Shown here: in pieces, positions 5,556 through 27,118 of the stretch
How the letters are laid out: each line of letters starts with the position of its first letter
Numbering within the stretch: position 1 is the first letter of the stretch
Assembly (NCBI RefSeq): GCF_001676785.2
Contig: NZ_CP015910.2
Span: forward strand, 372,001 to 436,000
Source: Brachyspira hyodysenteriae ATCC 27164
GTDB taxonomy: Bacteria > Spirochaetota > Brachyspiria > Brachyspirales > Brachyspiraceae
Length of the DNA: 64,000 nt
Reading direction: 5' to 3'
Translations under genes and position numbers: made by a program
The notes under the pieces: generated by a model
Told to the model about the DNA's origin: nothing
The model's input: only the letters and a program-made list of their open reading frames with translations
The model's database searches: none

Positions 5556-5566
5556 GGAGTATTACC

Positions 5567-6264: not shown

Positions 6265-6275
6265 GGTTCTTAAAA

Positions 6276-6767: not shown

Positions 6768-6778
6768 GGTAGATTATA

Positions 6779-8119: not shown

Positions 8120-8123
8120 TAAT

Positions 8124-8483: not shown

Positions 8484-8505
8484 TTAATTTAAGGAGATAA
8501 TTAAT

Positions 8506-8895: not shown

Positions 8896-8911
8896 TTAAT
8901 GGGGGAGAATA

Positions 8912-9322: not shown

Positions 9323-9363
9323 TAGTTAATTAAGAATTGTATTGAAATAGGAGATAAATAATT

Positions 9364-9990
9364 ATGGCAAGATATAGAGATGCTAGTTGCAGATTATGTC
9401 GCCGCGAAAAAATGAAACTTATGTTGAAAGGCGATAGATGTCTTACTGCTAAATGTGCTATAACAAAAAAGAGAGATGTACCAGGTCCTGCTAACAGAAA
9501 AATGAAACAGTTATCAGAATATGGTATTCAGATGAGAGAAAAACAGAAAGTTAAACGTATTTACGGCGTTTTAGAAAAACAGTTTAGAAATTATTATCAT
9601 GAGGCTATTCGTGTAGCTGGTGTATCCGGTGAAAACTTACTTAGATTATTAGAGCTTCGTTTGGATAATGTTGTTTACAGACTTGGACTTGCTAAAAGCA
9701 GAAATCAAGCTAGACAATTTGTAGCTCATGGTTTTATATCAGTTAATGGTAAAAGAATGACAATTCCTTCTTATTGCGTTAAAGTAGGTGATAAAGTTTC
9801 TTTCACTGAAAGAGGTAATGCAGTAGCTGAAGTAAAAACTATAGTGGAAGGTTTAAAAAGTGAGTATGTTCCTGCATGGTTAAGTTTAGATCTTTCTAAT
9901 AAGACAGGTGAAATTGTAACTTTACCTATAAGAGAGCATATAGAGTATCCTATTAATGAACAGCTCATCATTGAGTATTATTCTAAGTAA
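9364..9990 (+). CDS. rpsD: 30S ribosomal protein S4, zinc-binding form
   Basis: 208 residues. Four N-terminal cysteines (C9, C12, C26, C31) match the zinc-binding version of S4. The S4 RNA-binding domain lies around residues 98-160 (LDNVVYRLGLAKSRNQARQ and VNGKRMTIPSY). S4 initiates 30S assembly and, in E. coli, represses the alpha operon. The gene is followed by rpoA after 30 bases. Confidence 0.98.
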   Translation: MARYRDASCRLCRREKMKLMLKGDRCLTAKCAITKKRDVPGPANRKMKQLSEYGIQMREKQKVKRIYGVLEKQFRNYYHEAIRVAGVSGENLLRLLELRLDNVVYRLGLAKSRNQARQFVAHGFISVNGKRMTIPSYCVKVGDKVSFTERGNAVAEVKTIVEGLKSEYVPAWLSLDLSNKTGEIVTLPIREHIEYPINEQLIIEYYSK

Positions 9991-10020
9991 TGGAACTCTT
10001 TTATAAGGGGTATTTTAAGA

Positions 10021-10995
10021 ATGGCATTAAAAGAAATATTAGAATCTATTAGACATCCTCATAGAGTTACTTTTGAAAAGAAGGATTTGACTCCTACTTA
10101 TGGTAAATTTATAGCTCAGCCTTTCGAGAGAGGATATGCGGTAACAGTTGGTAATGCTTTAAGAAGAGTACTATTATCTTCTATACCTGGTTATGCTATT
10201 ACTACTATCAAAATAGATGGTGTTAGCAATGAATTTGAAAATGTTCCTGGAATGAAAGAGGACACAATTGTTATGATTATGCATCTTAAAAATGTTGTAG
10301 TTTCTCTTCCTAGTCATATGGATACTAAAACTATTCATATGAAAAAAGAAGGTCCATGTGTTATCACTGCTGGTGATTTGGTTGCTGATGATACTGAAGC
10401 TCAAGTGCATAATCCTGATTACTATATAGCTACAATCGCTGAGGGATATACTTTTGAGATGGATATTCAAATTGAAGGCGGATACAGTTATGTGCCTGCT
10501 GAAATGAATATTGAATTATTAGAAGATATTAATGCTATAGCTATAGATGCTATTTATTCTCCTATTGTAAGCGTAAAATATAATGTTGATCCTATAAGAG
10601 TTGGTCAGCGTATAGATTATGGTAAACTTACTCTTGAGATAGAAACTAAGGGTAATATAGCTCCTGATAAGGCTTTGTCCCAAGCTGCTAAAATTTTAAG
10701 AGATAATTTAAAGCATTTTATGGATCCTGAAGAGGCTAATGGAGATGATGAAAAAATAGAGGAAACTCCTAAAGATTCTGTGCTTGATTCTCTTAAAGGC
10801 AAACATATTGAAGAGGTAGAATTCTCTGTTAGAACTGCTAATTTCTTAATGGCTTCTGATTTGAAAACTTTAGATAAGGTTGCAGTAAAAACTGATGCTG
10901 ATTTACTAAGATTAATCGGTGCTAATGAAATGATTATCGAAGAAATTAAAGAAAAGCTAGCTGAGTATAATGCTCATCTTGGTATGAGAGGATAA
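10021..10995 (+). CDS. rpoA: RNA polymerase alpha subunit
   Basis: 324 residues. The N-terminal assembly domain has KFIAQPFERGYAVTVGNALR and SSIPGYAITTIKIDGV. After an acidic linker (about residues 233-255) the C-terminal domain follows (SVRTANFLMASDLKTLDKV and IIEEIKEKLAEYNAHLGM), the region that contacts UP elements and activators. It is placed between rpsD and rplQ as expected, with AAGGGG upstream of the ATG. Confidence 0.99.
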   Translation: MALKEILESIRHPHRVTFEKKDLTPTYGKFIAQPFERGYAVTVGNALRRVLLSSIPGYAITTIKIDGVSNEFENVPGMKEDTIVMIMHLKNVVVSLPSHMDTKTIHMKKEGPCVITAGDLVADDTEAQVHNPDYYIATIAEGYTFEMDIQIEGGYSYVPAEMNIELLEDINAIAIDAIYSPIVSVKYNVDPIRVGQRIDYGKLTLEIETKGNIAPDKALSQAAKILRDNLKHFMDPEEANGDDEKIEETPKDSVLDSLKGKHIEEVEFSVRTANFLMASDLKTLDKVAVKTDADLLRLIGANEMIIEEIKEKLAEYNAHLGMRG

Positions 10996-11423: not shown

Positions 11424-11496
11424 TAAAAAACTAAAAATAAATTAAATCAAGTTTATAAATCTAATATAAGCAAATTAAGATAAATATTATCGTGTA

Positions 11497-11520
11497 GTTA
11501 TAGCGAGTATTCGCTATAAC
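11497..11520 (+). promoter_or_regulatory. perfect 10-bp hairpin in the rplQ-rho interval
   Basis: GTTATAGCGA, loop GTAT, then TCGCTATAAC form a perfect 10-bp stem. It is followed by a mixed sequence rather than a clean T-run, so it is at best an imperfect intrinsic terminator of the ribosomal operon. It lies 33 bases before the rho start, where a leader structure controlling rho could also sit. Confidence 0.6.
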
Positions 11521-11553
11521 TTGTCATGATTATTATTTGTCGGAGGAATTATT

Positions 11554-13053
11554 ATGCCTTTTCCAACTAAAAAACGTGTGAAAGTATCTAATGAAAATGA
11601 GGAAATTGAAGTATCACCTGCACAGCCAAAGAAAGTTGTTAGAAAAAAGGTTGTAAAACAGGTTATTGCAGAAACTAATGAAGAAAATACAAATAATTCA
11701 GAAATTGTACAGGAAAAAGATGAATTTGATAAAGAAGTAGAAAATAATGATGAAGTAAAAGAAATAAAAAGACCTCATGATATACTTTATATTAGCAAAT
11801 TAAGTGTTTTAACTTTTGAGGAATTATTAGAATTTGCTGAGTCTTATGGTATAAAGAAAGACACTAGTAATAATATAAGACGTCAGGAACTTATGCATGC
11901 TATATTAAAGGCTCAGATTGCTTTAGAAGGAAAAATAGTTGCTGAAGGTACTTTAGAAACTTTGCAAGACGGTTTTGGTTTCTTGCGTTCAAAAAATAGT
12001 AATTATTTGGTTGGACCTGATGATATATATATTTCTCCAGCTCAAATAAGACTTTTTGGACTTAGAACCGGGGATCTTATAACAGGAGAGGTTAGACCTC
12101 CTAAAGATAATGCCGGAGAAAAATTCTTTGCACTTCTTAGAATAGAAACTGTTAATGGTGAAGAACCTAATAATCTTTATAAAAGACCTCATTTTGATAA
12201 ATTAACTCCTATTTTCCCTAATGAGCGTATAGATTTGGAGTTCGCTCCTAATAAAATTTCTACTCGTATCATTAATTTAGTTTCTCCTATAGGTAAAGGT
12301 CAAAGAGGTTTAATAGTAGCGCCTCCTAAAGCTGGTAAAACTATGATGCTTCAGGAAATTGCTAATGCTATATGTAAAAATTATCCTGATATTAAACTTT
12401 TCATTCTTCTTATAGATGAGCGTCCTGAAGAAGTTACTGATATGAAAAGACAAGTACCTGAAGCGGAAGTTATAGCTTCTACTTTTGATGAAACTCCTGA
12501 TAAACATTGTCAGGTTTCTGAAATGGTATTAGAAAAAGCTAAAAGATTAGTAGAAAATAAACATGATGTTGTTATCATATTAGACTCTATTACAAGACTT
12601 TCAAGAGCATACAACTTAGTAGTTCCTGCAAGCGGTAAAGTATTAACCGGTGGTGTTGATTCAAATGCTTTACATAAACCAAAAAGATTCTTCGGTGCTG
12701 CTCGTAATATAGAAGAGGGAGGTTCTCTTACTATAATTGCTTCTGCTTTGGTTGATACAGGCAGTAAAATGGATGACTACATTTATGAAGAATTCAAAGG
12801 TACTGGTAATATGGAGCTTCATTTAGACAGAAAACTTGCTAATAGAAGACTTTTCCCTGCTATTGATATTGATTCTTCTTCTACTAGAAGAGAGGATTTA
12901 CTTCTTACTGAAGAAGAGAAAAATAAAATGTGGGCATTAAGAAAGTATATGCAGTCTCAAGGTATAGATGAAGATCAATTAATAGAGACTGTTGTTGATA
13001 AAATGAATTCTACTAAAGATAATGCTGAGTTCTTAAAATTATTAAATTCATAA
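11554..13053 (+). CDS. rho: transcription termination factor Rho
   Basis: 499 residues, longer than the ~420 of E. coli Rho because of a charged N-terminal region of about 80 residues rich in Glu, Lys and Asn. The RNA-binding domain has [13 protein letters not shown], the Walker A is APPKAGKT near residue 256, the Walker B is [16 protein letters not shown], and the C terminus has [18 protein letters not shown]. Rho is a hexameric RNA translocase that ends transcription. GGAGG sits 7 bases before the ATG. Confidence 0.98.
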
Positions 13054-14832: not shown

Positions 14833-15959
14833 GAGTTTATAATCTCTTTTGCTATACGATCTAGCACATTTTTTTCACCTAGAGTTTCTCTTACTCTAAG
14901 CAAATTATTACTAACTTTCTTATAATATTCTTTATCAGTCAAATATTTTATAATATGACTTGTAATAGCATTTGGATTGCAGTCATTTTGTAAAAGTTCA
15001 GGTGCTGCTTCCTCATTAAGAAGTACATTAGGCATACCGACATATTTTATATTTGTGAATATTTTACCAAGGAAAAAAGTTATGAATGATATTTTATAGC
15101 ATATAACCATAGGCTTACCATAACATGCAGCTAAAAGACTAGCAGTACCGCTAGACATTATTAAGGCATCAGAATAAGAATATACATAATCTTTATCATC
15201 ACCGCATAATAGAGAATATGAAACATTTTCTAATAAATTTTTATGATCATTTAGAATTTTTTCTATAGGTTCTTTATATTCAGGATATGCTATAGGTATT
15301 ACAAATCTTATATTTGAAGAAAGCATATCATTAAGTATTTTCATAGATTTTATAAAAACAGGAGCTAATTTTTTTATTTCCTGATTTCTGCTTCCAAATA
15401 AAACTCCTACAGTATATTCTTTTTTAGGCATATTCAATTCAGGTATATTTTTATTGTAATCTAAATCAGCGAATGGATGTCCGCTATACATTACATTGCA
15501 TCCGTACTTTTTATATACTTCATAATCAAATAGAAAAGGAGTAATTATTTTTTTTGCTGAAAGCAGTCTTTTAGCATTCCAAGCTCCCCATATACCCACA
15601 TGCGGAGGAAAATAATACATATATGGTATATTATTAGCCTTACAGTATTTAGCTAATAGAAGATTTACACCTTGATTATCTACAAGAAGCATAATATCAA
15701 CTTTATTATTTTTTAAATACTCTTTTAATCTATTAAAAGCACCAAGGTTTTTAAAAGCAACTTTAGGATTAGCACCTTCAAATATTCCTATAGTTGATAA
15801 AGTTGACATATCAGATAATATATTTACATTAGCCTTTTGCATTTCAACGCCGCCGAAACCATCTAATATGATATCAGGATTCAGCTCTTTTATTTTTTTT
15901 GCTAATAAGGCACCTTGAATGTCGCCAGATACTTCGCCTGTAGCTATAAATATTCTCAT
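14829..15959 (-). CDS. lpxB: lipid-A-disaccharide synthase
   Basis: 376 residues, the normal LpxB length. It begins with the family pattern ATGEVSGDIQGALLAKKIKE and continues with DGFGGVEMQ, PHVGIWGAW and the C-terminal SSGTASLLAACYGKPMVICY sugar-nucleotide region. The enzyme joins UDP-diacylglucosamine and lipid X to make the lipid A disaccharide at the inner face of the inner membrane. It lies 12 bases after lpxA on the same strand, so the cell probably makes lipid A-type lipooligosaccharide. Confidence 0.95.
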   Translation of the reverse strand: MRIFIATGEVSGDIQGALLAKKIKELNPDIILDGFGGVEMQKANVNILSDMSTLSTIGIFEGANPKVAFKNLGAFNRLKEYLKNNKVDIMLLVDNQGVNLLLAKYCKANNIPYMYYFPPHVGIWGAWNAKRLLSAKKIITPFLFDYEVYKKYGCNVMYSGHPFADLDYNKNIPELNMPKKEYTVGVLFGSRNQEIKKLAPVFIKSMKILNDMLSSNIRFVIPIAYPEYKEPIEKILNDHKNLLENVSYSLLCGDDKDYVYSYSDALIMSSGTASLLAACYGKPMVICYKISFITFFLGKIFTNIKYVGMPNVLLNEEAAPELLQNDCNPNAITSHIIKYLTDKEYYKKVSNNLLRVRETLGEKNVLDRIAKEIINS

Positions 15960-15971
15960 AATTTATTTATT

Positions 15972-16766
15972 TTATACCGTTTTTCTAGGAGTTATTCCTC
16001 TTCTAGCTTTGGATATAAACTCTACAACATCTCTAGCTATAGGATTTAATGAATTATCATTTAAATATCTATCTAAAAATTCTTGTTTTGTTTTATTCCA
16101 ATTATACCACATATCATAAGCTTCTTCAGCCTGAGATATTTGTTCAGATGTAAATCCTGCTCTTCTCATACCGACTAAATTTAGTTTATAAACTATAGCT
16201 TCTCCTGCATGAGCTGTTAGAGCAAATGGAAGTATATCTCTTCCTACAGCTGACATACCGCTTATCATAGCATATTGACCTATAGCACAAAATTGATGCA
16301 CTACACAGTTTCCTGATATAAAAGCACCTTTTTCTACTCTTACATGTCCTGCTACTAAAGCACCATTACATATTATAACATTATCATGTATTTCGCAGTC
16401 ATGAGCCACATGTCCTGTAGCCATTATATAACAGTTATTTTTTATAATAGTTTTAGCATTTTCTTTAGATGCTCTATGAAGATTAGCAAATTCTCTAATC
16501 TCATTTCCATCGCCTATTTCTAAAAAACTTACTGTTTTTCTATCGAAATGTATATCTTGAGGAAGATTTCCTAAAACAGCATGATCATGTATTATATTAT
16601 TTTTACCTATTGTTGTATATTCCTTAATTACAGAATGTGCTCCTATAGTAGTGTTTTCACCTATACTAACTTCACCTTCTATAATAGCATAAGGACCAAT
16701 TTCTGCATTATCTGCAATTTTAGCAGAATCAGAAATTATAGCAGTTGGATGTATATTACTTGGCAT
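15972..16766 (-). CDS. lpxA: UDP-N-acetylglucosamine acyltransferase
   Basis: 264 residues made of hexapeptide repeats forming a left-handed beta-helix (IHPTAIISDSAKIADNAEIG at the start). The segment GHVAHDCEIHDNVIICN contains the histidine expected to be the catalytic base of LpxA. The enzyme transfers an acyl chain from acyl-ACP to UDP-GlcNAc, the first step of lipid A synthesis. It lies between fabZ and lpxB, the classical order. Confidence 0.95.
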   Translation of the reverse strand: MPSNIHPTAIISDSAKIADNAEIGPYAIIEGEVSIGENTTIGAHSVIKEYTTIGKNNIIHDHAVLGNLPQDIHFDRKTVSFLEIGDGNEIREFANLHRASKENAKTIIKNNCYIMATGHVAHDCEIHDNVIICNGALVAGHVRVEKGAFISGNCVVHQFCAIGQYAMISGMSAVGRDILPFALTAHAGEAIVYKLNLVGMRRAGFTSEQISQAEEAYDMWYNWNKTKQEFLDRYLNDNSLNPIARDVVEFISKARRGITPRKTV

Positions 16767-16783
16767 TTTATTTCCTATTTTTA

Positions 16784-17248
16784 TTATTTTTCAATTTTCA
16801 TTGCTTCTTTATCTACTAAAAATAAACCTAAATCACCTGAGCAAGCTAATTTATCATTAACTTTTACTTCTCCATGAGTTTTAAGTAAGTTATTGCTGAA
16901 AGCTTCAACAGTAACAAACATATCCATAACATCTCCTGGTATTACAGGATTTTTGAATTTAACATTATCTATTTTAGCAAAGAACATAAATTTTTTACCA
17001 TATTCATCAGGCTTTAAAATTTTTGTATAGCAGTATATACCAGAAGTTTGAGCCAATGCTTCTATCATTAAAACACCAGGCATAATAGGACTTTGCGGGA
17101 AATGTCCTGTAAACTGAGGTTCATTAAAAGTTACATTTTTTACAGCATGTATTTTTCCTTCTTCGATACTTTCTACTTTATCTACAAGCAGAAAAGGGTA
17201 TCTATGAGGCAATAATTCCATTATTTTATTTATATTAATTTTTTCCAT
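16784..17248 (-). CDS. fabZ: 3-hydroxyacyl-ACP dehydratase FabZ
   Basis: 154 residues, hot-dog fold. LLPHRYPFLLVDKVE at the N terminus and GHFPQSPIMPGVLMIEALAQ in the middle carry the catalytic His and Glu of FabZ. It dehydrates 3-hydroxyacyl-ACP in fatty-acid elongation, competing with LpxA for the same substrate pool, which explains the frequent fabZ-lpxA pairing. It is the first gene of the - strand operon, with AAGGA 9 bases upstream of the ATG. Confidence 0.95.
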   Translation of the reverse strand: MEKININKIMELLPHRYPFLLVDKVESIEEGKIHAVKNVTFNEPQFTGHFPQSPIMPGVLMIEALAQTSGIYCYTKILKPDEYGKKFMFFAKIDNVKFKNPVIPGDVMDMFVTVEAFSNNLLKTHGEVKVNDKLACSGDLGLFLVDKEAMKIEK

Positions 17249-17287
17249 TCTAATGAATCCTTAAAAAAGTATATTACATAATTTACA

Positions 17288-17315
17288 AGTATACCATATA
17301 ATAGTAAAGTTACAA
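17288..17315 (-). promoter_or_regulatory. sigma70-type promoter for fabZ-lpxA-lpxB
   Basis: Read on the - strand, TTGTAA is separated by 16 bases from TATACT, 39 bases upstream of the fabZ start codon. This is the only good match in the short fabZ upstream region. Confidence 0.55.
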
Positions 17316-17514
17316 GCATAAAAATAAGTTTAAAATGTTCGAAATTGATAGCTTTTTACGTGATTAATAAAAAATATTACTAAAATATTGTATATTTTAT
17401 AGTTTTTTATTGATATAGCTATGTAAATTATGAAAAATATTTATTGGTTTTATATGTAAAAAACAAAAGTAATATAATATTAAAAATAAAGCATGTAATT
17501 TTTTAGAAAATTAT

Positions 17515-17542
17515 TTGACTTATTAAAAAATGTTTATATAAT
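17515..17542 (+). promoter_or_regulatory. promoter P1 of the first leader copy
   Basis: TTGACT (17515-17520), 16-base spacer, TATAAT (17537-17542). It is a close match to the sigma70 consensus and is placed directly before the first structured leader copy. Confidence 0.65.
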
Positions 17543-17548
17543 ATAGAT

Positions 17549-17730
17549 ATATCATATCTGCGTATTTAGTCTCGCAGTTTGTTTATTATTTTTTTGATTA
17601 TGTTTTTAGGCTTTTGCTTTAAAAACATGTTTTTGGAATTAAATATAATTATTTAATTCTGGTTATTTTTTAATTTTTTTAATAAAAAAATAATAATCTA
17701 AACTTTAAGGAGGCTAAGTATATCTAATAA
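17549..17730 (+). ncRNA. structured leader element, copy 1 (ORF lost)
   Basis: Three hairpins in a row: CTGCG/CGCAG (17558-17576), ATGTTTTTA/TAAAAACAT (17600-17628) and GAATTAAAT/ATTTAATTC (17636-17659). They are followed by AAGGAGGCTAAGTATA. Copy 2 at 17917-18075 has the same order of parts, with base changes that keep the stems paired. Where copy 2 has an ATG after AAGGAGCTAAAT, copy 1 has ATA and then a short decayed stretch resembling the copy 2 ORF. It may be a non-coding regulator now, or a relic. Confidence 0.5.
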
Positions 17731-17882
17731 AAAATCTTGATTATCTTTTTTAATACTTTTAAAATTTATTATTGTTTATATATATTTAAAATATATACAT
17801 AGATATTTTACATTATTAGTATAATATTTTTATTAAAAATTAATTTTTTATAGTTTTTTTTAATAATTTATTAATATAATAC

Positions 17883-17910
17883 TTGATATATTTTGTAAAT
17901 ATGCTATTAT
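17883..17910 (+). promoter_or_regulatory. promoter P2 of the second leader copy
   Basis: TTGATA (17883-17888), 16-base spacer, TATTAT (17905-17910), with TATAAT immediately following. It precedes the second leader copy in the same way that P1 precedes the first. Confidence 0.5.
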
Positions 17911-17916
17911 TATAAT

Positions 17917-18072
17917 TGTAAGATAAAAATATTTAGCTGTTGCTAAAGTTTTTAAGAATATCATTTTTATATGATTGTGTTTCTATTTGAATCTAATAGA
18001 AACAGTGTTTGTAATTAAGTTCTCTTAATTATGGTTTTACAGATATTTTTAATAAACTTAAAGGAGCTAAAT
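17917..18072 (+). ncRNA. structured leader element, copy 2
   Basis: TTTAGC/GCTAAA (about 17932-17947), TGTTTCTATT/AATAGAAACA (17978-18004) and TAATTAAG/CTTAATTA (18012-18031) form three successive stems, followed by AAGGAGCTAAATATG. Compared with copy 1, T:A has become C:G inside the second stem, and G:C has become T:A and A:T has become G:C in the third. These are compensatory changes expected of a folded RNA. It forms the 5' leader of the 66-aa peptide gene. Confidence 0.55.
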
Positions 18073-18273
18073 ATGCCTATTAACTTTTTTTCTAACAAAA
18101 GTAATCTTAATACTGTTCACTATATAGTGAGTAATCTATTAACTTATGATGATAGTATTTCTCATATAATTAGAGTGAATAAGAATATCAAGAAGTATCA
18201 TTTTAAAAAATCAAAAAAGAAAATTAATTACCGTTCTGAAAAATTTGGTAATCATATTAAGCTGATTTCTTAA
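18073..18273 (+). CDS. 66-aa basic peptide, unknown function
   Basis: The ATG at 18073 is chosen because AAGGAG lies 7 bases upstream; an in-frame ATG at 18031 falls inside a leader stem and has no ribosome-binding site. The peptide starts MPINFFSNKSNLNTVHYIVS and has a strongly basic middle (KNIKKYHFKKSKKK). It has no signal peptide, membrane segment or recognised domain. A decayed second copy of its leader and start region lies about 350 bases upstream. It precedes the helicase operon on the same strand. Confidence 0.55.
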   Translation: MPINFFSNKSNLNTVHYIVSNLLTYDDSISHIIRVNKNIKKYHFKKSKKKINYRSEKFGNHIKLIS

Positions 18274-18344
18274 TCTATATAAATTATTAAGACACTGACT
18301 AAAAAATATAATTTATAAAAATCAATTAAGAATAGGAGTTTAAT

Positions 18345-18422
18345 ATGTTTGCAAATATCATTAGTATTTTGATACCTATTATTACAGTAAAAATAATTAC
18401 TGAAATTATGAAAAAGCGTTAA
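18345..18422 (+). CDS. 25-aa hydrophobic membrane peptide
   Basis: A tiny ORF with a good AGGAG 6 bases upstream of the ATG. It encodes MFANIISILIPIITVKIITE followed by IMKKR: one hydrophobic stretch of about 20 residues with a positively charged C-terminal end. The size and shape match small type I toxin-like or membrane regulatory peptides, but no family is recognised. It lies between the 66-aa gene and the 675-aa gene, all on the + strand. Confidence 0.45.
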   Translation: MFANIISILIPIITVKIITEIMKKR

Positions 18423-18481
18423 TGTAAAAATAGGAGGGTGCTATCAAATAAGCAGTTAATATCTTTTAGTTATTTAGGTAC

Positions 18482-18507
18482 TGTATTTTAGAATTTTTTA
18501 AAATACA
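18482..18507 (+). promoter_or_regulatory. 9-bp hairpin just upstream of the nuclease/helicase operon
   Basis: TGTATTTTA, loop GAATTTTT, TAAAATACA is a perfect 9-bp inverted repeat 33 bases before the ATG of the 675-aa gene. It could be an operator, an RNA processing site or a weak attenuator; there is no T-run after it. Confidence 0.4.
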
Positions 18508-18540
18508 TATTAGTTTAAGAAATATATTAAAGGAGTATAT

Positions 18541-20568
18541 ATGTACAATCAAGATAATAATCATCACGGAAAAAATAATCACCATATAGGTGGAAATCAT
18601 AAAAATAGAAAAAATAATAAAAACAGGAAGAATAATATAAAAAATAATAATGCGTTTAAAAATGAATATATCAAAGTTGAAAATTTTGATCTAAACACTA
18701 ATTTAAAAGATGGTATTATAGAAGATAGTGCTGTTCATAAAGATATTTCTAGTAATATGGCTGATTCCATTGGCTTAGGAAGAAGTGTTAAATATCATAA
18801 TCATCGTAATAATTTAAGTAAAGATGTGAATGATTATCCTGAGGCTTTAAAGAAAGTTTCAGATTCAAGAAAAAATATGAATCCAAAACAACGTATAGGA
18901 TATATAGATGAAGTTAATTTAACTGAATCATATAATATCAATGCAGCTGAACAATGCAGAGAATATGAAACACATGCAAGATTAACTAAACCAGGAGATC
19001 CTGAAGCAGATATTATAGTTAGGGATGGTAATACAGAGACAAAATATCAAGTAAAAGATAATGAAAATCCGGAAGTTGGGGTAGAAGAAATTTCTAAAAT
19101 AAGATATTCAGGTAAAGACGGCTCAAATAAAAAGATAGTTCCTCAAGAAAATCTTGATAAAGTAAAAGAAATAGCTTCTAAAAAACAAAATACTGATACA
19201 AAAGATTATAAACATACAGCAGAAAATACATACGACAGGTTATCAAGTAAAGATGGTAAAGTTAATAGTGAAAGATTAAATAGAAATGAAAGTGAAGAGA
19301 TTACAAGAAGATTAGAAAATGGAGAAAGGGTAGAAGTAAAAAATAAAGAAGCAAAATTTAGATCTCAGTATTTGAATCAGCTTCCTAAAGCTATGATATG
19401 CGGAGGATTATTGTCAGGTGCAAGCGAAGCCATAAGTAAATTTGCCCAATTCATATCAGATGGTGGCAATTGGACTGAAGAGGAGTTTATTGAGGCAGGA
19501 TATAAAATTCTTACTTCTGGTATTGAAGGCGGAGCAAAAAGCGGATTAGCTGTAACTTTTACTTATCTAGGAAATGAAATAGGTTCATCTTTACTTAAAA
19601 GTCCTTATGTCGGCGGAACTTTGGCTATGATGACAATAGATACATTAAAAAGTATGTACAGATTTATTATAGGTGAAATAGACAGTGTTGAGTTAATGGG
19701 AGAAGTGTATCAGAATTTTATTTATACAACATCAGCTTCATTAGGTGGATGGGGAGGAAGTACATTAGCTGGAGTTATAGTTTCTAATATGTCTATAAGC
19801 GGAGCTTCTGCAGCTGCTGCAGGTGCTTGGGCAAGTATAGTTGGATCTGTTTTAGGAGGATTAGCAGTTGGAATTACAGTATCTTATATTGTATCAAAAG
19901 ATAGTCAGGCAGGATTAGAAATAGCAAAAAGAGATATAGAGACTGCTTATCAGAATTTTGATAAAGACCGTAATTTATATTCTTTAGTAGATGGAGTAGG
20001 TACTCAAAGAGAGTGGGAGTTTAAATTTACAGATTTAATTCCTGGCATAGGCATTTTTGCTCAGATATCAGAATATTCAGCACGTAAATCTGAATTGGAT
20101 AGAATATCAAATATGCTGGATGGAGAGTATAAAAACATAGATGAAAGAAAAAGAAAAGTATTGGAAAATATACATCAGAAGTATTATGAATTAAAAGAGA
20201 ATATAGAAGAAACATTCTACAGCAGTATAACTACTATGACTGATGATGATAAAATAAATTTAACAAATCAGTTAATGGATTATTTAAATCAAAAGAGAAC
20301 TATATATGCATTAAAAGAGAAAAAATATTTTTCTGAAATACAAAAAATAGATGATAGAAATAAAAAATTAGCAGCAGATATACAGAAAGATGAGTTGTTT
20401 TTCAATGAAATAGAAAATCTTACTAATATGATTAATGATTCTGATATAGAAAATAAAGAAATGATAATAGATGCTATAGCTTATTTAGTATCTGATGAGT
20501 GGCTTAAAAATTTTAAAAGCAATGATGATGATCTTTACAATTTATTGATGGAATACGGATTGTTATAA
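18541..20568 (+). CDS. 675-aa protein: PD-(D/E)XK-like segment plus glycine-rich membrane region
   Basis: Unknown family. Residues 1-42 are low complexity (Asn, His, Lys). Residues 135-172 hold a possible nuclease signature: upstream glutamates (E137, E141, E143), then PEADIIV with D157 and KYQVK (168-172), an E-D-QxK pattern like Mrr-type PD-(D/E)XK enzymes. Residues about 281-452 are Gly/Ala/Ser-rich and hydrophobic with glycine-zipper-like runs (for example GASAAAAGAWASIVGSVLGG at 421-440), suggesting membrane insertion. The C-terminal ~170 residues are helical and charged. AAGGAG precedes the ATG; the coiled-coil gene follows after 12 bases. Confidence 0.6.
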   Translation: MYNQDNNHHGKNNHHIGGNHKNRKNNKNRKNNIKNNNAFKNEYIKVENFDLNTNLKDGIIEDSAVHKDISSNMADSIGLGRSVKYHNHRNNLSKDVNDYPEALKKVSDSRKNMNPKQRIGYIDEVNLTESYNINAAEQCREYETHARLTKPGDPEADIIVRDGNTETKYQVKDNENPEVGVEEISKIRYSGKDGSNKKIVPQENLDKVKEIASKKQNTDTKDYKHTAENTYDRLSSKDGKVNSERLNRNESEEITRRLENGERVEVKNKEAKFRSQYLNQLPKAMICGGLLSGASEAISKFAQFISDGGNWTEEEFIEAGYKILTSGIEGGAKSGLAVTFTYLGNEIGSSLLKSPYVGGTLAMMTIDTLKSMYRFIIGEIDSVELMGEVYQNFIYTTSASLGGWGGSTLAGVIVSNMSISGASAAAAGAWASIVGSVLGGLAVGITVSYIVSKDSQAGLEIAKRDIETAYQNFDKDRNLYSLVDGVGTQREWEFKFTDLIPGIGIFAQISEYSARKSELDRISNMLDGEYKNIDERKRKVLENIHQKYYELKENIEETFYSSITTMTDDDKINLTNQLMDYLNQKRTIYALKEKKYFSEIQKIDDRNKKLAADIQKDELFFNEIENLTNMINDSDIENKEMIIDAIAYLVSDEWLKNFKSNDDDLYNLLMEYGLL

Positions 20569-20580
20569 GGAGTATCATTT

Positions 20581-21735
20581 ATGTTATTAAAGTTCTTTGT
20601 TAATAAACTTTGCAGTTATAGTTTAGATAGAAAAAAAGAAAAAGTTAAAAGAAAGATAGATGATCTGAATGCATATATACAACTTTCATCAAAAGAAATT
20701 GATAGTACCCAAACAAAATTGAATTCTAAATTATATGAAATAACAGATTTTCTTAATGGAATTGTATATGAGGCAAAAATTACTTTCAAACCAATAGTTC
20801 AAAGTGAATTACATGAGGTATCTGATATAATAAAGAAATCTTATGATTTGCTGTTTGTTATAATTGGTTATAATGCCAAAATGAAAATATTTTACTGTAA
20901 GAAAAATTATTATATGACAGAAATAAATTTTCTTAAAAAAAGAAAAGGAGAATGTTTTAAAATTATAAAAACATTATCTCTTTCAAAGAAAAAAGATGAA
21001 AGGTTAAAATGGTTTAATGAAGCTAATAATACTAATATTAAAACTATAGATGAACTTAGAAGTTTAAGAGAGAGTCATGATAATATTGATTTGTTAATTG
21101 ATTTATGCGAAAGAGATTTGAAAAACTATAGAGTAATTAAAAAACTTAGAGAATATATAAAAACCGCAGATAAAAAGATTGATAATTTTTATAAAAGAAT
21201 TGAAAATATTGATATTGAAATAAAGAAATTTAGAGAAAAAGTTTTTCAATATTTAGAAGATTATAATAAATTGTATAGCGATTTTTTAGATATTCTTAAT
21301 AGAGAATATAATATAGAAGATATATTTCCTAGTTATCTAAATTTATTAGATAGAAAAAATGCAGCAGAAAACATTAAATCATTATTATTAACAGAGGCTA
21401 AAAATATTACATATGAAATAAAATCAATTAAAGGAAGTCCTCAATATTATAATAATAAGAATACACTTATTAGTCAGAGGAATAATGCTTGGGATAATTT
21501 CAATTCAAGTAATGAGCAATTTCTTAAGTTAAATGAAAAGGTAGAGTATTATAATAAAACTTTTGATAAGCTTTTAAAATCTAGAAGAAAAAGTATATTA
21601 GATTTATATCATACCTGCTCTAAAAAAATAGTGAGATGTAAAAAAGGAGGATATTTAATTATTCTCAATAAAGATAATAGAGATTCAAATATATTTATAT
21701 CAGATTACAGCAATAATAAAGAAGCAATAAACTAA
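20581..21735 (+). CDS. 384-aa coiled-coil protein, unknown function
   Basis: Long helical, Lys/Glu/Asn-rich protein with extended predicted coiled coils (residues about 15-60 and 180-235). No enzymatic motif, signal peptide or clear membrane span is visible, although a short hydrophobic LLFVIIGY lies near residue 90. It is packed between the 675-aa gene and the 129-aa gene with GGAG upstream. It probably acts as a structural or partner subunit of the same system; that is inferred from position only. Confidence 0.55.
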   Translation: MLLKFFVNKLCSYSLDRKKEKVKRKIDDLNAYIQLSSKEIDSTQTKLNSKLYEITDFLNGIVYEAKITFKPIVQSELHEVSDIIKKSYDLLFVIIGYNAKMKIFYCKKNYYMTEINFLKKRKGECFKIIKTLSLSKKKDERLKWFNEANNTNIKTIDELRSLRESHDNIDLLIDLCERDLKNYRVIKKLREYIKTADKKIDNFYKRIENIDIEIKKFREKVFQYLEDYNKLYSDFLDILNREYNIEDIFPSYLNLLDRKNAAENIKSLLLTEAKNITYEIKSIKGSPQYYNNKNTLISQRNNAWDNFNSSNEQFLKLNEKVEYYNKTFDKLLKSRRKSILDLYHTCSKKIVRCKKGGYLIILNKDNRDSNIFISDYSNNKEAIN

Positions 21736-21761
21736 GATAATTAAAATATAAAGGAGATGTT

Positions 21762-22151
21762 ATGGAATATAAAATAAAAGTAAAAAAGAAGTATTTAACA
21801 GGCATTAATAGGATAATAATATTTTCTATTATGAATGGTATTAATAATCCAAGAGATTTATTTTGTAATGCTCTTAATATATTCTATAAAGATACAGTTA
21901 TTAAATATATATTGAAGCTTATGAATGTTCATTTAATTTGTATAAGAGAGGGTGAAAATGGAAAAGGCTTCTATTTAAACAAAGATTTTGACGGAGAATA
22001 TTGCAATATTAAGTTGGAAAATAATATAGATTTGAACTGCACTGAAATAGAATACATCAAAAATATATTTAGAAATAATTTATCGGATAAAAATATATTG
22101 AGAGCACTAGATTTTAAAGATGCAGCAAATAAATTATTAGGAGTACAATAA
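21762..22151 (+). CDS. 129-aa protein, possible adaptor or regulator
   Basis: Small protein beginning MEYKIKVKKKYLTGINRI. Residues about 12-75 alternate helices and a short beta-hairpin (ICIREGENGKGFYLNKDF), which could be a winged-helix fold, but the match is too weak to claim. The stop overlaps the helicase ATG (TAATG), so production of the two proteins is coupled. AAGGAG lies 7 bases upstream of its start. Confidence 0.5.
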   Translation: MEYKIKVKKKYLTGINRIIIFSIMNGINNPRDLFCNALNIFYKDTVIKYILKLMNVHLICIREGENGKGFYLNKDFDGEYCNIKLENNIDLNCTEIEYIKNIFRNNLSDKNILRALDFKDAANKLLGVQ

Positions 22152-23680
22152 TGAAATTTTTTGAATATTTGAATGAATGGGAAAAATATTTATCTAAATT
22201 GTTAGAAAAATATGAGGATAAAAAAGAAGATGGAGATTATACTAAATATTTAAGACAGTTAAAATCAATAGAAAATGTTCGTTCTGGTATTTTTATGTCG
22301 GTGAATTTGTTTAATACAATAAAAAATAACTATGATAATACTTTAAATAATATACAGAATAATAAAAAAGTTAGGAATATTTATCCTATTCAGGAAATAT
22401 ATAAAAATAATAATCAAGTATTTAATATCATAGAAAAAGCTGTTAATAGCAGAGAATTATTCTGTTTAATGGGCCCTCCTGGTACAGGTAAAACAACAGC
22501 TATTGTGGAAATTATTTTGCAGACTATTAAGAAAAATCCAATAGCAAAAATAGCGATATGTTCTGAAACTCATGTCGCTGTAGATAATGCTATAGAAAGA
22601 CTTAACTTTGAAATAGAGAATAGAAATATTCATTGTTCTATTATGAGATATGAAGAGTTTAAAAATGAATATGATAATGAAAATTTAAATATACGCTATA
22701 AAGATTATATAGATTCTTGGAAAAAAAAATTAGAAAGTGCATATGACGAAAGTTTTAGAAATAAATTATTTAATGAATTTGAAGAGCATATTATAAATAA
22801 TAAGAAATATCATAAATATATATGTGAAAATTCTAATATTATAGGTATAACTTGTAATCAGATGGCTAGATTTAAATTAGATGAATTAGACGATCCTTAT
22901 GATTTAATAATTATAGATGAGGTATCAAAAAATACATTGCCTGAGATTTTAATACCTGCTTTATTTGCTAAAAAATTAATATTGGTAGGCGATCCTAATC
23001 AGCTTCCTCCTGTATTTTGTAAAGATGAAATAGAGACTATGAGTGAAATAGATACAAATTTACAAAATGAGCTTATTGATAATTCATTAGTTGATAAATT
23101 ATTTAGAAATGTTGACAAAGATACAATGTTTGGAATGCTTGATACTCAGTATAGAATGGAAGCTAAAATAGGCGATATTGTAAGTAAATGTTTCTATAAT
23201 GGAGAATTAAAAAACGGCACAGAATATAGCGATGATAAAAGTATATATTGGCTTGATTATGATACAAATAAAAGATTTCCTTATAATTACGGCGGAGAAC
23301 TATATAATCCTATAGAAGTTGAGTTAATAAATGATAGTATTGAAAATTTGAATATTGATTCAGATACATCTATTGCTATTATAACACCATATAAGAAACA
23401 AAAAAGGGAATTAAAAAATGTTATTAATAATAATGAAAAATTAAAATCTTTAAATATAGAAATAGATACAATAGATGCTTTTCAGGGTAAGGAAGCCGAT
23501 ATAGTTTATTTTAGTGTTGTTAGAAATACAGGTTCTACAAGATTTTTTTCTAATATAAAAAGGCTTAATGTGGCAATATCAAGAACAAAAAAAAGATTAT
23601 ATATGGTTGGAATGTCTAAGTATTGTAATAAAGTAGATATATTAAAAAATATTTATTCATCTTCAAAAGTGTTAATATAG
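22151..23680 (+). CDS. superfamily 1 (UPF1-like) DNA/RNA helicase
   Basis: 509 residues with the full SF1 motif set: Walker A GPPGTGKT (108-115), motif Ia AICSETHVAVDNAIE, Walker B IIIDEVSK (D256-E257), motif III GDPNQLPPV (280-288), motif IV LDTQYRM (330-336), motif V DAFQGKEADIV (442-452) and motif VI RLNVAISRTKKRL (471-483). It is shorter than UPF1 and has no accessory N-terminal zinc domain or fused nuclease. As last gene of the operon, it is the probable ATP-driven component. Single-stranded nucleic-acid translocation is expected from the family. Confidence 0.85.
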   Translation: MKFFEYLNEWEKYLSKLLEKYEDKKEDGDYTKYLRQLKSIENVRSGIFMSVNLFNTIKNNYDNTLNNIQNNKKVRNIYPIQEIYKNNNQVFNIIEKAVNSRELFCLMGPPGTGKTTAIVEIILQTIKKNPIAKIAICSETHVAVDNAIERLNFEIENRNIHCSIMRYEEFKNEYDNENLNIRYKDYIDSWKKKLESAYDESFRNKLFNEFEEHIINNKKYHKYICENSNIIGITCNQMARFKLDELDDPYDLIIIDEVSKNTLPEILIPALFAKKLILVGDPNQLPPVFCKDEIETMSEIDTNLQNELIDNSLVDKLFRNVDKDTMFGMLDTQYRMEAKIGDIVSKCFYNGELKNGTEYSDDKSIYWLDYDTNKRFPYNYGGELYNPIEVELINDSIENLNIDSDTSIAIITPYKKQKRELKNVINNNEKLKSLNIEIDTIDAFQGKEADIVYFSVVRNTGSTRFFSNIKRLNVAISRTKKRLYMVGMSKYCNKVDILKNIYSSSKVLI

Positions 23681-23684
23681 ATTA

Positions 23685-23733
23685 TATAGTCAATCTAACT
23701 ATTATATTTATTTTGATAGTTAGATTGACTATA
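23685..23733 (+). terminator. perfect 18-bp hairpin between convergent genes
   Basis: TATAGTCAATCTAACTAT, a 13-base loop, and ATAGTTAGATTGACTATA are perfectly complementary. It sits 4 bases after the helicase stop and 10 bases from the end of the convergent alcohol dehydrogenase gene, so it probably terminates both. No long T-run follows. Confidence 0.7.
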
Positions 23734-23743
23734 ATATAAAGTA

Positions 23744-24931
23744 TTAAACATTAGCCATTTTAAAAATATTATAAACATCTTCCTTATTTAAAGCTCTGAA
23801 ATGTTTAAACTCTAATTTTCCGTCTTTTATGCATCTTCTTGTTAAATCCTGTAAAACTTCTTCGCTTTGTATTCCAACTCCTAATTCTGTAAAGTTGGTA
23901 GGCATATTTATTTGTTTGAAATATTCTATAGTTTTTTCTATTCCTTTAAGTCCTGTATCATCATCTATATTCCAAACATTTTTTGAGTATTGAATGAATC
24001 TTTCTTTTTTATCTTTTAAACAATATTTAGCCCAAGGCCCCCACATTACAGAAAGACTTGCTCCATGTGCACAATCGAATTTCGCACTTAATTCATGTCC
24101 GAATTTATGAACTATAAAATCAAAAGTAAGTCCTAGTCCTGTTAAAGTATTATGAGATAAACTTCCGCACCACATTAGTTCGCTCATAGCATCATAATTA
24201 TTTTTATCTTTCATAGCTATTAATCCGTTTTTAAAAATGGTTCTTAAAACAGCTTCAGCAATTGCATCTGTAGTTTGATTATTATCGCCGTTTATAGAAT
24301 TTTCACTGTCGCCGAAATATCTGTCAAATGTATGCATAAGCATGTCAACTATTCCGCATGCTACTTGATAATAAGGCAATGTAAATGTTAGGCATGGATT
24401 CATTATAGCGAATTTAGGTCGGTTAAATTCGGTAGGAAGTCCTCTTTTATCAAGAGTTTCTTCATTAGTAAGTACGGCAGAATTGCTTGTTTCACTTCCT
24501 GCTGCCGATATTGTGAGTATGCATCCTATAGGAAGACTTTTTTCTAAGGTTTTTTCTCTTGTCCAAAAATCCCATATATCAGTATCCGGATTAGCTACCC
24601 CATGTGCTATAGCTTTTGCAGTGTCAATTGCACTTCCTCCGCCTATTCCAAGTATGAAATCTGATTTAAAATCTATAGCTTTTTTTACTCCTTCTCTAGC
24701 ATAAGATAGGGTAGGGTTAGCTCTTACTCCTCCGAATAGTTCATATTCTATATTTTCATTTTTTATTATATTTTCTATCTTTTCTAATAATCCGCTTTCT
24801 TTTACGCTTTTTGTACCATAAACTATAAATACTCTTTTACCTCCGAAGTTTTTTATTTCTTTTGCTGTATTTTCTTCAGCATTTTTTCCAAATATTACTT
24901 TTGTTGGATTATTATATATAAAACTTTGCAT
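23744..24931 (-). CDS. iron-containing alcohol dehydrogenase
   Basis: 395 residues, the standard length of family III alcohol dehydrogenases (YqhD/BdhA type). The nucleotide-binding GIGGGSAIDTAKAIAHG is near residue 95. The metal ligands are visible as the Asp and His of DMLMHTFDRYF and the two histidines of VHKFGHELSAKFDCAHGASL. It reduces aldehydes to alcohols with NAD(P)H, fitting fermentative metabolism. It is convergent to the helicase operon and monocistronic. Confidence 0.92.
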   Translation of the reverse strand: MQSFIYNNPTKVIFGKNAEENTAKEIKNFGGKRVFIVYGTKSVKESGLLEKIENIIKNENIEYELFGGVRANPTLSYAREGVKKAIDFKSDFILGIGGGSAIDTAKAIAHGVANPDTDIWDFWTREKTLEKSLPIGCILTISAAGSETSNSAVLTNEETLDKRGLPTEFNRPKFAIMNPCLTFTLPYYQVACGIVDMLMHTFDRYFGDSENSINGDNNQTTDAIAEAVLRTIFKNGLIAMKDKNNYDAMSELMWCGSLSHNTLTGLGLTFDFIVHKFGHELSAKFDCAHGASLSVMWGPWAKYCLKDKKERFIQYSKNVWNIDDDTGLKGIEKTIEYFKQINMPTNFTELGVGIQSEEVLQDLTRRCIKDGKLEFKHFRALNKEDVYNIFKMANV

Positions 24932-25059
24932 ATTCTTTTCCTTTATATTATAATATTTTTACTAAAACAGCATTATAATGATTTTATTATTATAATACAA
25001 TATAAAAAAATATTTATAATTTTAAGTAAAATTTTTTAGATATAAATTTTTTATTGTAC

Positions 25060-25087
25060 TTGATATTTATTTATTATCTAATATACT
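25060..25087 (+). promoter_or_regulatory. promoter for the large ankyrin gene, overlapping a palindrome
   Basis: TTGATA (25060-25065), 16-base spacer, TATACT (25082-25087), 36 bases before the GTG start. The perfect palindrome ATACTTATAAGTAT (25083-25096) overlaps the -10 element and could be an operator. Confidence 0.5.
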
Positions 25088-25123
25088 TATAAGTATTACT
25101 TATTTTGAGATTGGAGTATAAAG

Positions 25124-27118
25124 GTGAAACATATTAGATTTTTGATTATACTATTGACTTTTAGTTATTCTGTATTTGCATTAACTGCTAATGAAACCAA
25201 TTTATTTAATGCAATTAATGAGCAAAATTCAGATAATGTATTAAATATATTAAATAATTCTACAGATATAGATATAAATGTATTAGATACTGAAGGATAT
25301 ACTCCTTTACATAGAGCAATTTATAATAAAGATTTGAATACAGTTAATGTCCTTTTGGAAAATGAAAATATAGATGTTAATTCTAAATTAGATATGAAAG
25401 TAAGTATAGACGGCTGGTATTTAGGCGGTGCAACACCATTAATATTAGCTTCTTATATTGGAGATACTAATATCGTTTCAGTTTTACTTGAGAATAATGC
25501 AGATATTAAAGCTAAAGATGATGTTGACGGCAGTATGGCTATACATATGGCTTCTGCTAACGGAAATAATGATGTTGTAATTATGCTTCTTGATAAAGAT
25601 CCTACTACTATAAATGATGTAGATAATAGAGGAAATACTCCATTACATTGGGCTGCTATGAAAGATAAGCCTGAAACTGTTAAATTATTAATGGAAAATG
25701 GAGCAGATATAGAATCTAAAGATGCAGACGGATGGACACCTTTACATTATGCTGCTGCTTTCTCTTCTCTTCAAACAGTACAGACTCTCGTTGATTTAGG
25801 TGCTGATAAAATGAGCAAAACTAAAGACGGAAATGAGCCTATATATTATGCTAGAGGTGATGATGTTAAAAATTATTTATCAGGTAATGATAATATAGCA
25901 AGAGAAGGTACTCCTGAAGATACTTTGGAAGGAAATGAAACTGTTGTAGCTGATAATAATACAGCAGATGAAAATAATGATGCAGAAAAAACAGCCTCAG
26001 AAGAAACAACTGCAGAAAAGACAGTTACTATTACAGATGTTGAGGTGATTGATGATAATACTCAGGATATGTCTGATGAAGAAATTGTTAATACTGATTT
26101 AGATGTAAAACAGCTTGAGCTTTTAGTGGCAGTAAAAAATAATGATATAATAGCCTTAAATACTTTAATAAAAGAAGGCGTTAATCCTAATTTTGTAGAT
26201 GAAAATGGATATACTCCTTTACATTTAGCAGTTATAAATAATAATTTAGATACAGTAGAGGCTTTGCTTAAATATAAAGATATAAATAAAGAAGCAAAAC
26301 TTCCTTATAAAGCTACTTTAAATAATTGGTACTTAGGCGGTGCTACTCCTTTAATAGTTGCTGCTTATGTAGGTAATGCTGATATAGTTTATACTTTAAT
26401 AGAGGCAGGCTGTGATATAAGATCTAGAGATGACATAGATGGTGCTATGCCTATACATGTAGCTGCAGCTAATGGAAATGATGATGCTGTTATATTACTT
26501 TTAGAAAAAGATAAAACATTAGTAAATGAAGCTGATAAAAATGGAAATGATACTCCATTACATTGGGCTGCTATGAAAGATAAGCCTTCTACAATTAATG
26601 TGCTTTTGAAGTATGGTGCTGATACAAAAATACAAAACTCTGACGGAAATACAGCTTTACATTATGCAGCAATGTATGCTTCTTCTGATGTTATAAAAAA
26701 TATAGTTAATGCTGATAAATCAAGTGTTAATACAGCAAATAATGAAAATATGTATCCTATACATTATGCTGCTTTAGAAAATAATGTTGATGCTTTAGTG
26801 GCATTAGTTCAGGACGGAAAAGCTGATGTTAATATAAAAGATTCTAATAATGATACAGCTTTACATTATGCTGCTGCTTATGGTAATATGGACAGTGTTA
26901 TGTCATTAGTAGAAAAATGCTCTGCTGATAAAACATTAAAAGACGATGATGGATATACAGCTGCTGATTTAGCTCTTGATAATGGTTATGATAATATAGC
27001 TAATTATTTAAGAGGTGCTGCTTATATACCTGATAATAATCAAGATAATAGAAGCGGACAGGAATTAATACTTCCTGAATACAATAAAAAACCAAATTTG
27101 GATAAAAAATGGTGGTAA
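25124..27118 (+). CDS. exported ankyrin-repeat protein, internally duplicated
   Basis: 664 residues from a GTG start with GGAG 7 bases upstream. An N-terminal signal peptide is visible (IRFLIILLTFSYSVFALTA). Two ankyrin blocks follow (about residues 20-250 and 330-640), separated by an acidic Glu/Thr/Ala linker. The blocks are clear duplicates: both contain WYLGGATPLI and TPLHWAAMKDKP at matching places. Ankyrin repeats bind protein partners, here presumably in the periplasm or outside the cell. The substrate is unknown. Confidence 0.9.
   Translation: MKHIRFLIILLTFSYSVFALTANETNLFNAINEQNSDNVLNILNNSTDIDINVLDTEGYTPLHRAIYNKDLNTVNVLLENENIDVNSKLDMKVSIDGWYLGGATPLILASYIGDTNIVSVLLENNADIKAKDDVDGSMAIHMASANGNNDVVIMLLDKDPTTINDVDNRGNTPLHWAAMKDKPETVKLLMENGADIESKDADGWTPLHYAAAFSSLQTVQTLVDLGADKMSKTKDGNEPIYYARGDDVKNYLSGNDNIAREGTPEDTLEGNETVVADNNTADENNDAEKTASEETTAEKTVTITDVEVIDDNTQDMSDEEIVNTDLDVKQLELLVAVKNNDIIALNTLIKEGVNPNFVDENGYTPLHLAVINNNLDTVEALLKYKDINKEAKLPYKATLNNWYLGGATPLIVAAYVGNADIVYTLIEAGCDIRSRDDIDGAMPIHVAAANGNDDAVILLLEKDKTLVNEADKNGNDTPLHWAAMKDKPSTINVLLKYGADTKIQNSDGNTALHYAAMYASSDVIKNIVNADKSSVNTANNENMYPIHYAALENNVDALVALVQDGKADVNIKDSNNDTALHYAAAYGNMDSVMSLVEKCSADKTLKDDDGYTAADLALDNGYDNIANYLRGAAYIPDNNQDNRSGQELILPEYNKKPNLDKKWW

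What the first reader, a model, noticed from the sequence alone, without database searches (positions are those of the whole stretch)
17515..23733. Candidate undescribed multi-gene system: leader RNAs, micro-peptides, nuclease/membrane protein, coiled coil and SF1 helicase
Four genes (18541-20568, 20581-21735, 21762-22151, 22151-23680) are packed with 12-, 26- and -1-base spacing and end at an 18-bp hairpin. The first protein combines an E-D-QxK PD-(D/E)XK-like segment with a glycine-zipper-like membrane region; the last is a complete UPF1-like SF1 helicase. The locus is preceded by duplicated structured leaders and two tiny ORFs and is flanked by ordinary housekeeping genes. Nuclease plus translocase plus membrane module is a combination seen in anti-phage and plasmid-conflict systems. 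That role is inferred; I know of no named system with this four-gene order. From memory, the 675-aa protein resembles a family of uncharacterised bacterial proteins with a QxK-type segment followed by Gly-rich helices.
Basis: partly seen in the sequence, partly recalled or inferred. Interest (0 to 1): 0.8.

Follow-up and report, generated by a model that had tools for sequence, protein, structure and literature searches.

The report
Conserved four-gene nuclease–helicase defence candidate
Four neighbouring genes of a gut spirochaete, encoding a nuclease-like membrane protein, a coiled coil, a small helper and an RNA/DNA-unwinding motor, recur in the same order in three bacterial phyla and sit among CRISPR and restriction genes, so they are probably an unnamed virus- or plasmid-defence system.

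Summary
Four genes A-B-C-D (675, 384, 129, 509 aa) lie at the stated coordinates and spacings, behind structured leader RNAs and two tiny ORFs, and end at a strong hairpin. The genome is a Brachyspira. All four occur together, in the same order, in 8 of 26 Brachyspira species (a ninth is split across contigs) and in no others. The same order recurs on Polaromonas, Acinetobacter (A frame-broken) and Streptococcus plasmids. The D helicases of these four lineages form one clade (100/99, 100/100 support), separate from Mokosh MkoA and CoCoNuT CnuH. A keeps an E-D-QxK motif plus a Gly/Ala-rich segment in every lineage. A-like proteins also appear in a Type III-A CoCoNuT operon, where the literature notes an unnamed "glycine zipper" protein. 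No A, B or C matches PADLOC, Pfam or NCBIfam (one weak C-MkoB hit). In relatives the module shares a fabZ-adh hotspot with type VI (Cas13) or type III-A CRISPR-Cas; elsewhere that site is empty or holds a decayed remnant. Best reading: a new helicase-nuclease defence variant, D/C sensing and A executing. Defence, nuclease fold and membrane action are untested; AlphaFold failed on A. The tiny ORFs are real, but "duplicated" leaders are not.

The parts
17515..17542 (+). best sigma-70-like promoter (TTGACT-N16-TATAAT, 11 of 12); conservation with sister species begins about here
   Evidence: promoter-like sites are not enriched over shuffles in the region, so support comes from conservation
17543..17690 (+). 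structured leader RNA 1
   Evidence: z -2.9, 0 of 200 shuffles as stable; conserved in 4 sister species; stem CTGCG/CGCAG here versus CTCTGG/CCAGAG elsewhere looks compensatory by eye, but RNAalifold chose another pairing and found little covariation
17925..18068 (+). structured leader RNA 2 (unrelated in sequence to leader 1)
   Evidence: z -3.4, 0 of 200 shuffles; no shared repeat
18073..18273 (+). 66-aa basic small protein ('SNLN' family), Shine-Dalgarno AAAGGAG
   Evidence: 77% identical in 3 sister species; pN/pS 0.37; 72-73-aa relatives lie inside type III-A CRISPR loci
18345..18422 (+). 25-aa hydrophobic micro-peptide MFANIISILIPIITVKIITEIMKKR
   Evidence: conserved at the same place in sister species, with tandem paralogues in some; pN/pS 0.58
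18541..20568 (+). gene A, 675 aa: low-complexity N-terminus, E124-D157-Q170xK172 nuclease-like domain, Gly/Ala-rich hydrophobic segment (~409-451), helical C-terminal half
   Evidence: invariant E124, D157, Q170, K172 across Brachyspira, Polaromonas, Streptococcus and Cronobacter
20581..21735 (+). gene B, 384 aa, charged, probably coiled-coil protein
   Evidence: positional counterparts on plasmids are of similar make-up but not demonstrably homologous
21762..22151 (+). gene C, 129 aa small protein, possibly winged-helix
   Evidence: weak hits to MarR/GntR-type chains; the Streptococcus C matches the MkoB N-terminus at E 9.7e-5
22151..23680 (+). gene D, 509 aa UPF1-like SF1 helicase with a complete motif set
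   Evidence: own clade in trees
23685..23733 (.). 20-pair hairpin between convergent D and adh, probably a shared transcription terminator
   Evidence: z -5.9; a similar hairpin is visible in the decayed locus of G023 (sequence)

Best explanation
A-B-C-D is a mobile four-gene conflict (probably anti-phage or anti-plasmid) system of the helicase-plus-nuclease kind. D, the UPF1-like motor, with the small protein C, surveys RNA or single-stranded DNA. When it meets an abnormal or foreign substrate it triggers A through the coiled-coil protein B and the helical tail of A. A is the executioner: its E-D-QxK domain cuts nucleic acid while its glycine-rich segment anchors it in, or inserts it into, the membrane, so infection ends by DNA or RNA loss and/or membrane damage. 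Shown here: the conserved gene set, conserved motifs, complete helicase, mobility and defence neighbourhood. Inferred: the sensing step, the A-B-D contacts, nuclease and membrane activity, and the phenotype. The leader RNAs and micro-peptides belong to the insertion site as much as to the system and most likely tune expression or add small membrane-active peptides.
For: All four genes are found in the same 8 Brachyspira genomes of 26 and in the same order. The same four-gene order occurs on plasmids of Polaromonas, Acinetobacter soli and Streptococcus salivarius. In PLSDB the D relatives with the best combination of identity and coverage are on the very records that also carry A. D forms one clade across these lineages. 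A's E, D and QxK residues are invariant across four lineages, and A-like proteins are confirmed by profile comparison in a Cronobacter WYL operon (E 1.7e-10) and a Klebsiella CoCoNuT operon (E 3e-16). Neighbours are type I RM/HNH/DUF262 genes, Cas13 with Cas1-Cas2 and a CRISPR array and Cas10-Csm-Csm6-Cas1. The chromosomal site is empty in four species, a decayed remnant in another, and the module is broken in G010. Helicase-nuclease immunity with a sensor helicase restraining a nuclease is established for Hachiman (PMC12278908).
Against: No phenotype has been tested. No family search or structure prediction confirms a nuclease fold for A, and hydrophobicity of its Gly-rich part is moderate (best 19-residue mean 2.0). 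B and C are too diverged to prove homology between phyla. The system was found in few plasmids (5 records, 3 genera) and not in phage or IMG/VR collections. A could be non-catalytic: conserved E, D and QxK are compatible with, but do not prove, catalysis.
Confidence: 0.55

Rival explanations
1. Restriction-like interference without suicide: D translocates along invading DNA or transcripts and A cuts them directly; the Gly-rich part only multimerises or anchors A near the envelope, where nucleic acid enters.
For: Complete SF1 motor plus nuclease-like protein; plasmid carriage and a location beside type I RM-like genes; helicase-nuclease precedents such as Gabija and type I RM (established knowledge).
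Against: The Gly-zipper-like segment is kept in every lineage, including CoCoNuT- and WYL-associated A-like proteins without D next to them, which suggests a recurring effector rather than a D-specific cutter.
Confidence: 0.2
2. A plasmid- or element-borne conflict function other than phage defence, such as plasmid competition, entry exclusion or an addiction module, with the micro-peptides as part of it.
For: Three of the four lineages carry it on plasmids, one of them conjugative; tiny hydrophobic peptides with their own Shine-Dalgarno sites precede A in Brachyspira.
Against: In Brachyspira it is chromosomal at a fixed site. Micro-ORFs were looked for only in Brachyspira loci; the annotated genes just upstream of A on two plasmids are ordinary-sized and of a different type.
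Confidence: 0.12
3. A host RNA-turnover or stress-response operon with no conflict role.
For: D's closest solved relatives are RNA helicases of eukaryotic RNA surveillance.
Against: Patchy presence (9 of 26 species), empty sites, decay, plasmid carriage and defence neighbours.
Confidence: 0.06

Closest known systems
Mokosh type I (MkoA-MkoB)
   Same: Best PADLOC match of D is the MkoA helicase part (E 3.5e-98); an MkoB gene lies beside the helicase gene in true Mokosh as C lies beside D; the Streptococcus C weakly matches the MkoB N-terminus (E 9.7e-5).
   Different: D lacks the long N-terminal part (kinase in the Allocoleopsis MkoA); there is no PLD nuclease; A and B have no counterpart in Mokosh; D forms its own clade apart from true MkoA proteins.
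CoCoNuT Type II/III-A (CnuB-CnuC-CnuH-CnuE)
   Same: UPF1-like helicase, coiled coils, and in one Type III-A extension an A-like glycine-zipper protein (PMC11090510; profile match E 3e-16).
   Different: No McrB GTPase, McrC, HEPN CnuE or TerY-P genes; D is far from CnuH in the tree.
Hachiman (HamA-HamB)
   Same: Proposed logic: sensor helicase plus nuclease effector (PMC12278908).
   Different: HamB is related to the Ski2 subfamily and HamA is DUF1837 (PMC12278908); A matches no such family.
Cronobacter WYL / A-like / 1068-aa operon (unnamed)
   Same: Shares the A-type nuclease-like and Gly-rich region (E 1.7e-10).
   Different: No helicase, B or C recognised; a WYL regulator and a large unknown protein instead.

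Membership tests
UPF1-like SF1 helicase (gene D) | complete SF1 motif set and closest similarity to Upf1/Sen1/SMUBP-2 | tested here: met
   GPPGTGKT, DEVS, GDPNQLPP, QYRM, DAFQGKEADIV and RLNVAISR are all present and largely invariant
PD-(D/E)XK nuclease (gene A) | conserved E...D...(E/Q)xK residues | tested here: met
   E124, D157, Q170, K172 invariant across Brachyspira, Polaromonas, Streptococcus and Cronobacter; the same pattern in the Klebsiella protein
PD-(D/E)XK nuclease (gene A) | alpha-beta-beta-beta-alpha core fold | tested here: inconclusive
   AlphaFold2 pLDDT 34 and 42; element order is compatible but the models are unreliable; no Pfam or PDB-sequence match
PD-(D/E)XK nuclease (gene A) | nucleic-acid cleavage | not testable with these tools
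   needs purified protein
Mokosh type I | full-length MkoA with its N-terminal part (kinase in the example examined) plus helicase | tested here: not met
   D is 509 aa and aligns only to the C-terminal helicase part, 570-1081 of 1112; a true MkoA matches 6-1108
Mokosh type I | MkoB with PLD nuclease domain | tested here: not met
   no PLD or MkoB match in A, B or C of the window; the Streptococcus C matches only the MkoB N-terminus
CoCoNuT | McrB-type GTPase CnuB and McrC-type CnuC encoded beside CnuH | tested here: not met
   no such gene seen in window 15000-26500 or annotated in the plasmid loci read
Hachiman | HamA (DUF1837) nuclease with Ski2-like HamB | tested here: not met
   A has no DUF1837 or PADLOC match; D is SF1
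anti-phage defence system | protects cells from phage or plasmid | not testable with these tools
   only location and conservation evidence

The most novel reading that the evidence does not exclude
ABCD is an independent type of UPF1-helicase immunity whose effector is a membrane-inserting nuclease, and the leader RNA plus micro-peptide cassette is a shared addiction or back-up module of this hotspot, wired both to ABCD and to the type III and type VI CRISPR loci beside it, so that losing or blocking the defence genes frees toxic small peptides.
Probability: 0.1. Interest if true: 0.85.

Novelty: new variant of a known kind. Interest (0 to 1): 0.62.

Why it matters
It appears to be a defence-type gene set that PADLOC 2023 does not list and for which I found no name in the open literature searched, spread over Spirochaetota, Pseudomonadota and Bacillota. 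It puts the unnamed 'glycine zipper' protein of CoCoNuT operons into a family of nuclease-like, membrane-type effectors found beside at least three different partner modules. That gives one protein family to test for a common killing mechanism, and shows another way in which UPF1-like helicases may be used in bacterial immunity.

Tried and rejected
Leader duplication: no shared repeat between the two leaders. Rfam matches: none. Known family for A, B or C in Pfam, PADLOC, NCBIfam or PHROGs: none convincing; weak hits of B and of A's C-terminal half look like coiled-coil noise. Simple Mokosh or CoCoNuT membership: rejected on missing domains (membership table). Phage origin: no A relative in 50,697 phage records or in five IMG/VR scans. 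Profile links of B between phyla: not significant. C between phyla: only weak. C to MkoB as a general link: only the Streptococcus protein scores. The pN/pS values printed for B and D are invalid (sequences with internal shifts compared without alignment) and are not used. Codon-position counts alone did not show that the 66-aa ORF is coding; pN/pS did better. D as direct sister of MkoA: seen in the first tree (90/92) but not in the reduced one, so not claimed.
Full report
What was checked. The window is part of a nearly closed Brachyspira-type genome (G000:C1:372001-436000, two contigs); two of the same-genus relatives with the locus are B. hampsonii 30446 and B. alvinipulli ATCC 51933. The only part that fails is the claim that the leaders are duplicates: both are structured, but they share no sequence.

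The gene set is real. Searches with A, B, C and D separately across 26 Brachyspira species hit the same eight genomes, at one contiguous locus in each, in the same order; a ninth genome (G008) carries pieces of A and D at contig ends. In G010 the module is broken (A split, stop inside D). Conservation within the genus is highest in D (mean column identity 83%), then A (70%), C (68%) and B (62%).

It crosses phyla. tblastn of A against 72,556 plasmids gave five records from three genera. The loci examined carry the same order: Polaromonas pPNAP01 (650, 408, 128 and 585 aa), Acinetobacter soli (A frame-broken, B fragmented, C 126 aa, D 583 aa) and Streptococcus salivarius (642, 296+214, 148 and 498 aa). 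In a search with D alone, the top-ranked records were those same ones, before the kinase-fused helicases of cyanobacteria. Trees put all these D proteins in one clade (100/99 with 19 sequences, 100/100 after removing the longest branches), apart from true Mokosh MkoA and CoCoNuT CnuH. Homology of B and C between phyla is only suggested by position, size and weak profile scores.

What the proteins look like. D is a complete UPF1-like SF1 helicase. A has E124, D157, Q170 and K172 invariant in an alignment of Brachyspira, Polaromonas, Streptococcus and Cronobacter proteins, followed by a Gly/Ala-rich hydrophobic stretch and a helical tail. Profile comparison confirms A-like proteins in a Cronobacter operon with a WYL regulator and a 1068-aa protein and in a Klebsiella plasmid operon. 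The latter operon has vWA, AAA, CARF, PP2C, kinase, CnuH-like, CnuE-like and CnuB-like genes and a DUF2357 McrC-like gene, i.e. [quoted passage not shown] So A belongs to an effector-like family used with at least three kinds of partner. The nuclease fold itself is not shown: AlphaFold2 gave pLDDT 34 (whole A) and 42 (domain), with an element order compatible with, but not proof of, PD-(D/E)XK. C may be a winged-helix protein (weak MarR/GntR hits); the Streptococcus C matches the N-terminus of Mokosh MkoB (E 9.7e-5), and the Klebsiella CnuE-like protein matches the same MkoB region (E 5e-9). This hints that Mokosh, CoCoNuT and this system share a small-domain-plus-UPF1-helicase core, but for the window's own C it is not established.

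The place is a defence hotspot. The module always sits next to the same iron alcohol dehydrogenase gene and, where the contig allows, between it and fabZ. This interval is 127-234 bases in four species without the module, about 0.5 kb in another, and in G023 a 1.4-kb remnant with leader and pieces of D. In G003 and G019 it also holds a Cas13 gene (PADLOC Cas13gr13, E about 1e-196 to 1e-200; a related truncated gene in G004), with Cas1, Cas2 and a CRISPR array in G019. In G015, G002 and G005 it holds type III-A CRISPR-Cas parts; in G005 a type III-A locus with Cas10, Csm2-Csm4, Cas6, Csm6 and Cas1 is there without A-B-C-D. In Acinetobacter the system lies between helicase/N-6 methylase/HNH genes and DUF262/HNH genes.

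The micro-peptides. Upstream of A in the Brachyspira loci lie a 66-73-aa basic protein and one to four peptides of 22-31 aa, each with its own Shine-Dalgarno site. Their substitution pattern (pN/pS 0.37 for the 66-aa ORF, 0.21 for a 29-aa peptide, 0.58 for the 25-aa peptide; A 0.37, C 0.29) indicates real small proteins; pairs are not independent, so this is supporting, not decisive. The same kind of cassette stands inside the type III-A locus of G005 without A-B-C-D, so it belongs to the hotspot as much as to the four-gene system. Its function is unknown; small membrane-active or regulatory peptides are the simplest guess.

Mechanism and confidence. I am nearly certain of the conserved four-gene system (about 0.97), fairly confident that it serves in conflict with phages or plasmids (about 0.75), and only moderately confident in the proposed division of labour (D and C sense, B links, A cuts and/or acts on the membrane; about 0.35-0.4). 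The overall figure given for the best explanation, 0.55, is between these. The analogy is with Hachiman, in which a sensor helicase holds back a nuclease (PMC12278908), not membership in it. Exchange of nuclease effectors between unrelated immune systems has direct precedent (PMC12799240).

Novelty. PADLOC 2023, Pfam, NCBIfam and PHROGs hold no model that convincingly matches A, B or C, and the papers searched name no such four-gene system. The literature library is open-access only and DefenseFinder models were not available, so an existing name cannot be excluded. I file it as a new variant of the helicase-nuclease kind.

Noticed in passing
L101 (G019), 3847-8175 and array about 8470-10034; L044 482-3490; L050 250-2670: Type VI CRISPR locus at the same hotspot: about 1000-aa Cas13 (two RNxxxH motifs, PADLOC Cas13gr13 E about 1e-200), type II-like Cas1 and Cas2 and an array in G019; the G004 copy is truncated. 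No paper found in the library that mentions Brachyspira with Cas13.
   Followed up: partly
L101 about 8470-10034; L048 6043-7872: CRISPR arrays in which many repeats carry an inserted palindromic element at the same place (repeat units of 54, 117-118 and 126 bases beside one intact 35-base copy in L101; similar inserts in part of the type III-A array).
   Followed up: partly
L044 3505-6234; L101 1172-3841; L050 2813-5458: About 900-aa protein next to Cas13 with a DUF3800-like 'DESG' motif (by eye) and no match in Pfam or PADLOC; possible new type VI accessory.
   Followed up: no
L099 (G005) 11433-12117: Micro-peptide cassette (72-73-aa basic ORF plus four peptides of 22-31 aa, each with a Shine-Dalgarno site) between Csm6-like genes of a type III-A locus without A-B-C-D.
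   Followed up: partly
L104 (G023), between adh and fabZ: Decayed locus: leader, 66-aa ORF remnant and pieces of helicase D, showing loss of the module in place.
   Followed up: yes
L046 421-1227; L044 7362-7928; L045 5973-6452; L051 2446-3012 (sense orientation for L045 and L051): Extra N-terminal copies of A just upstream of A in several species; the best-kept one (G013) has lost the D157 region, the others are shorter or broken.
   Followed up: partly
L061 7912-13494; L062 7912-13494: Cronobacter plasmid three-gene operon: WYL regulator, A-like 470-aa protein, 1068-aa protein without Pfam match; another possible conflict system.
   Followed up: partly
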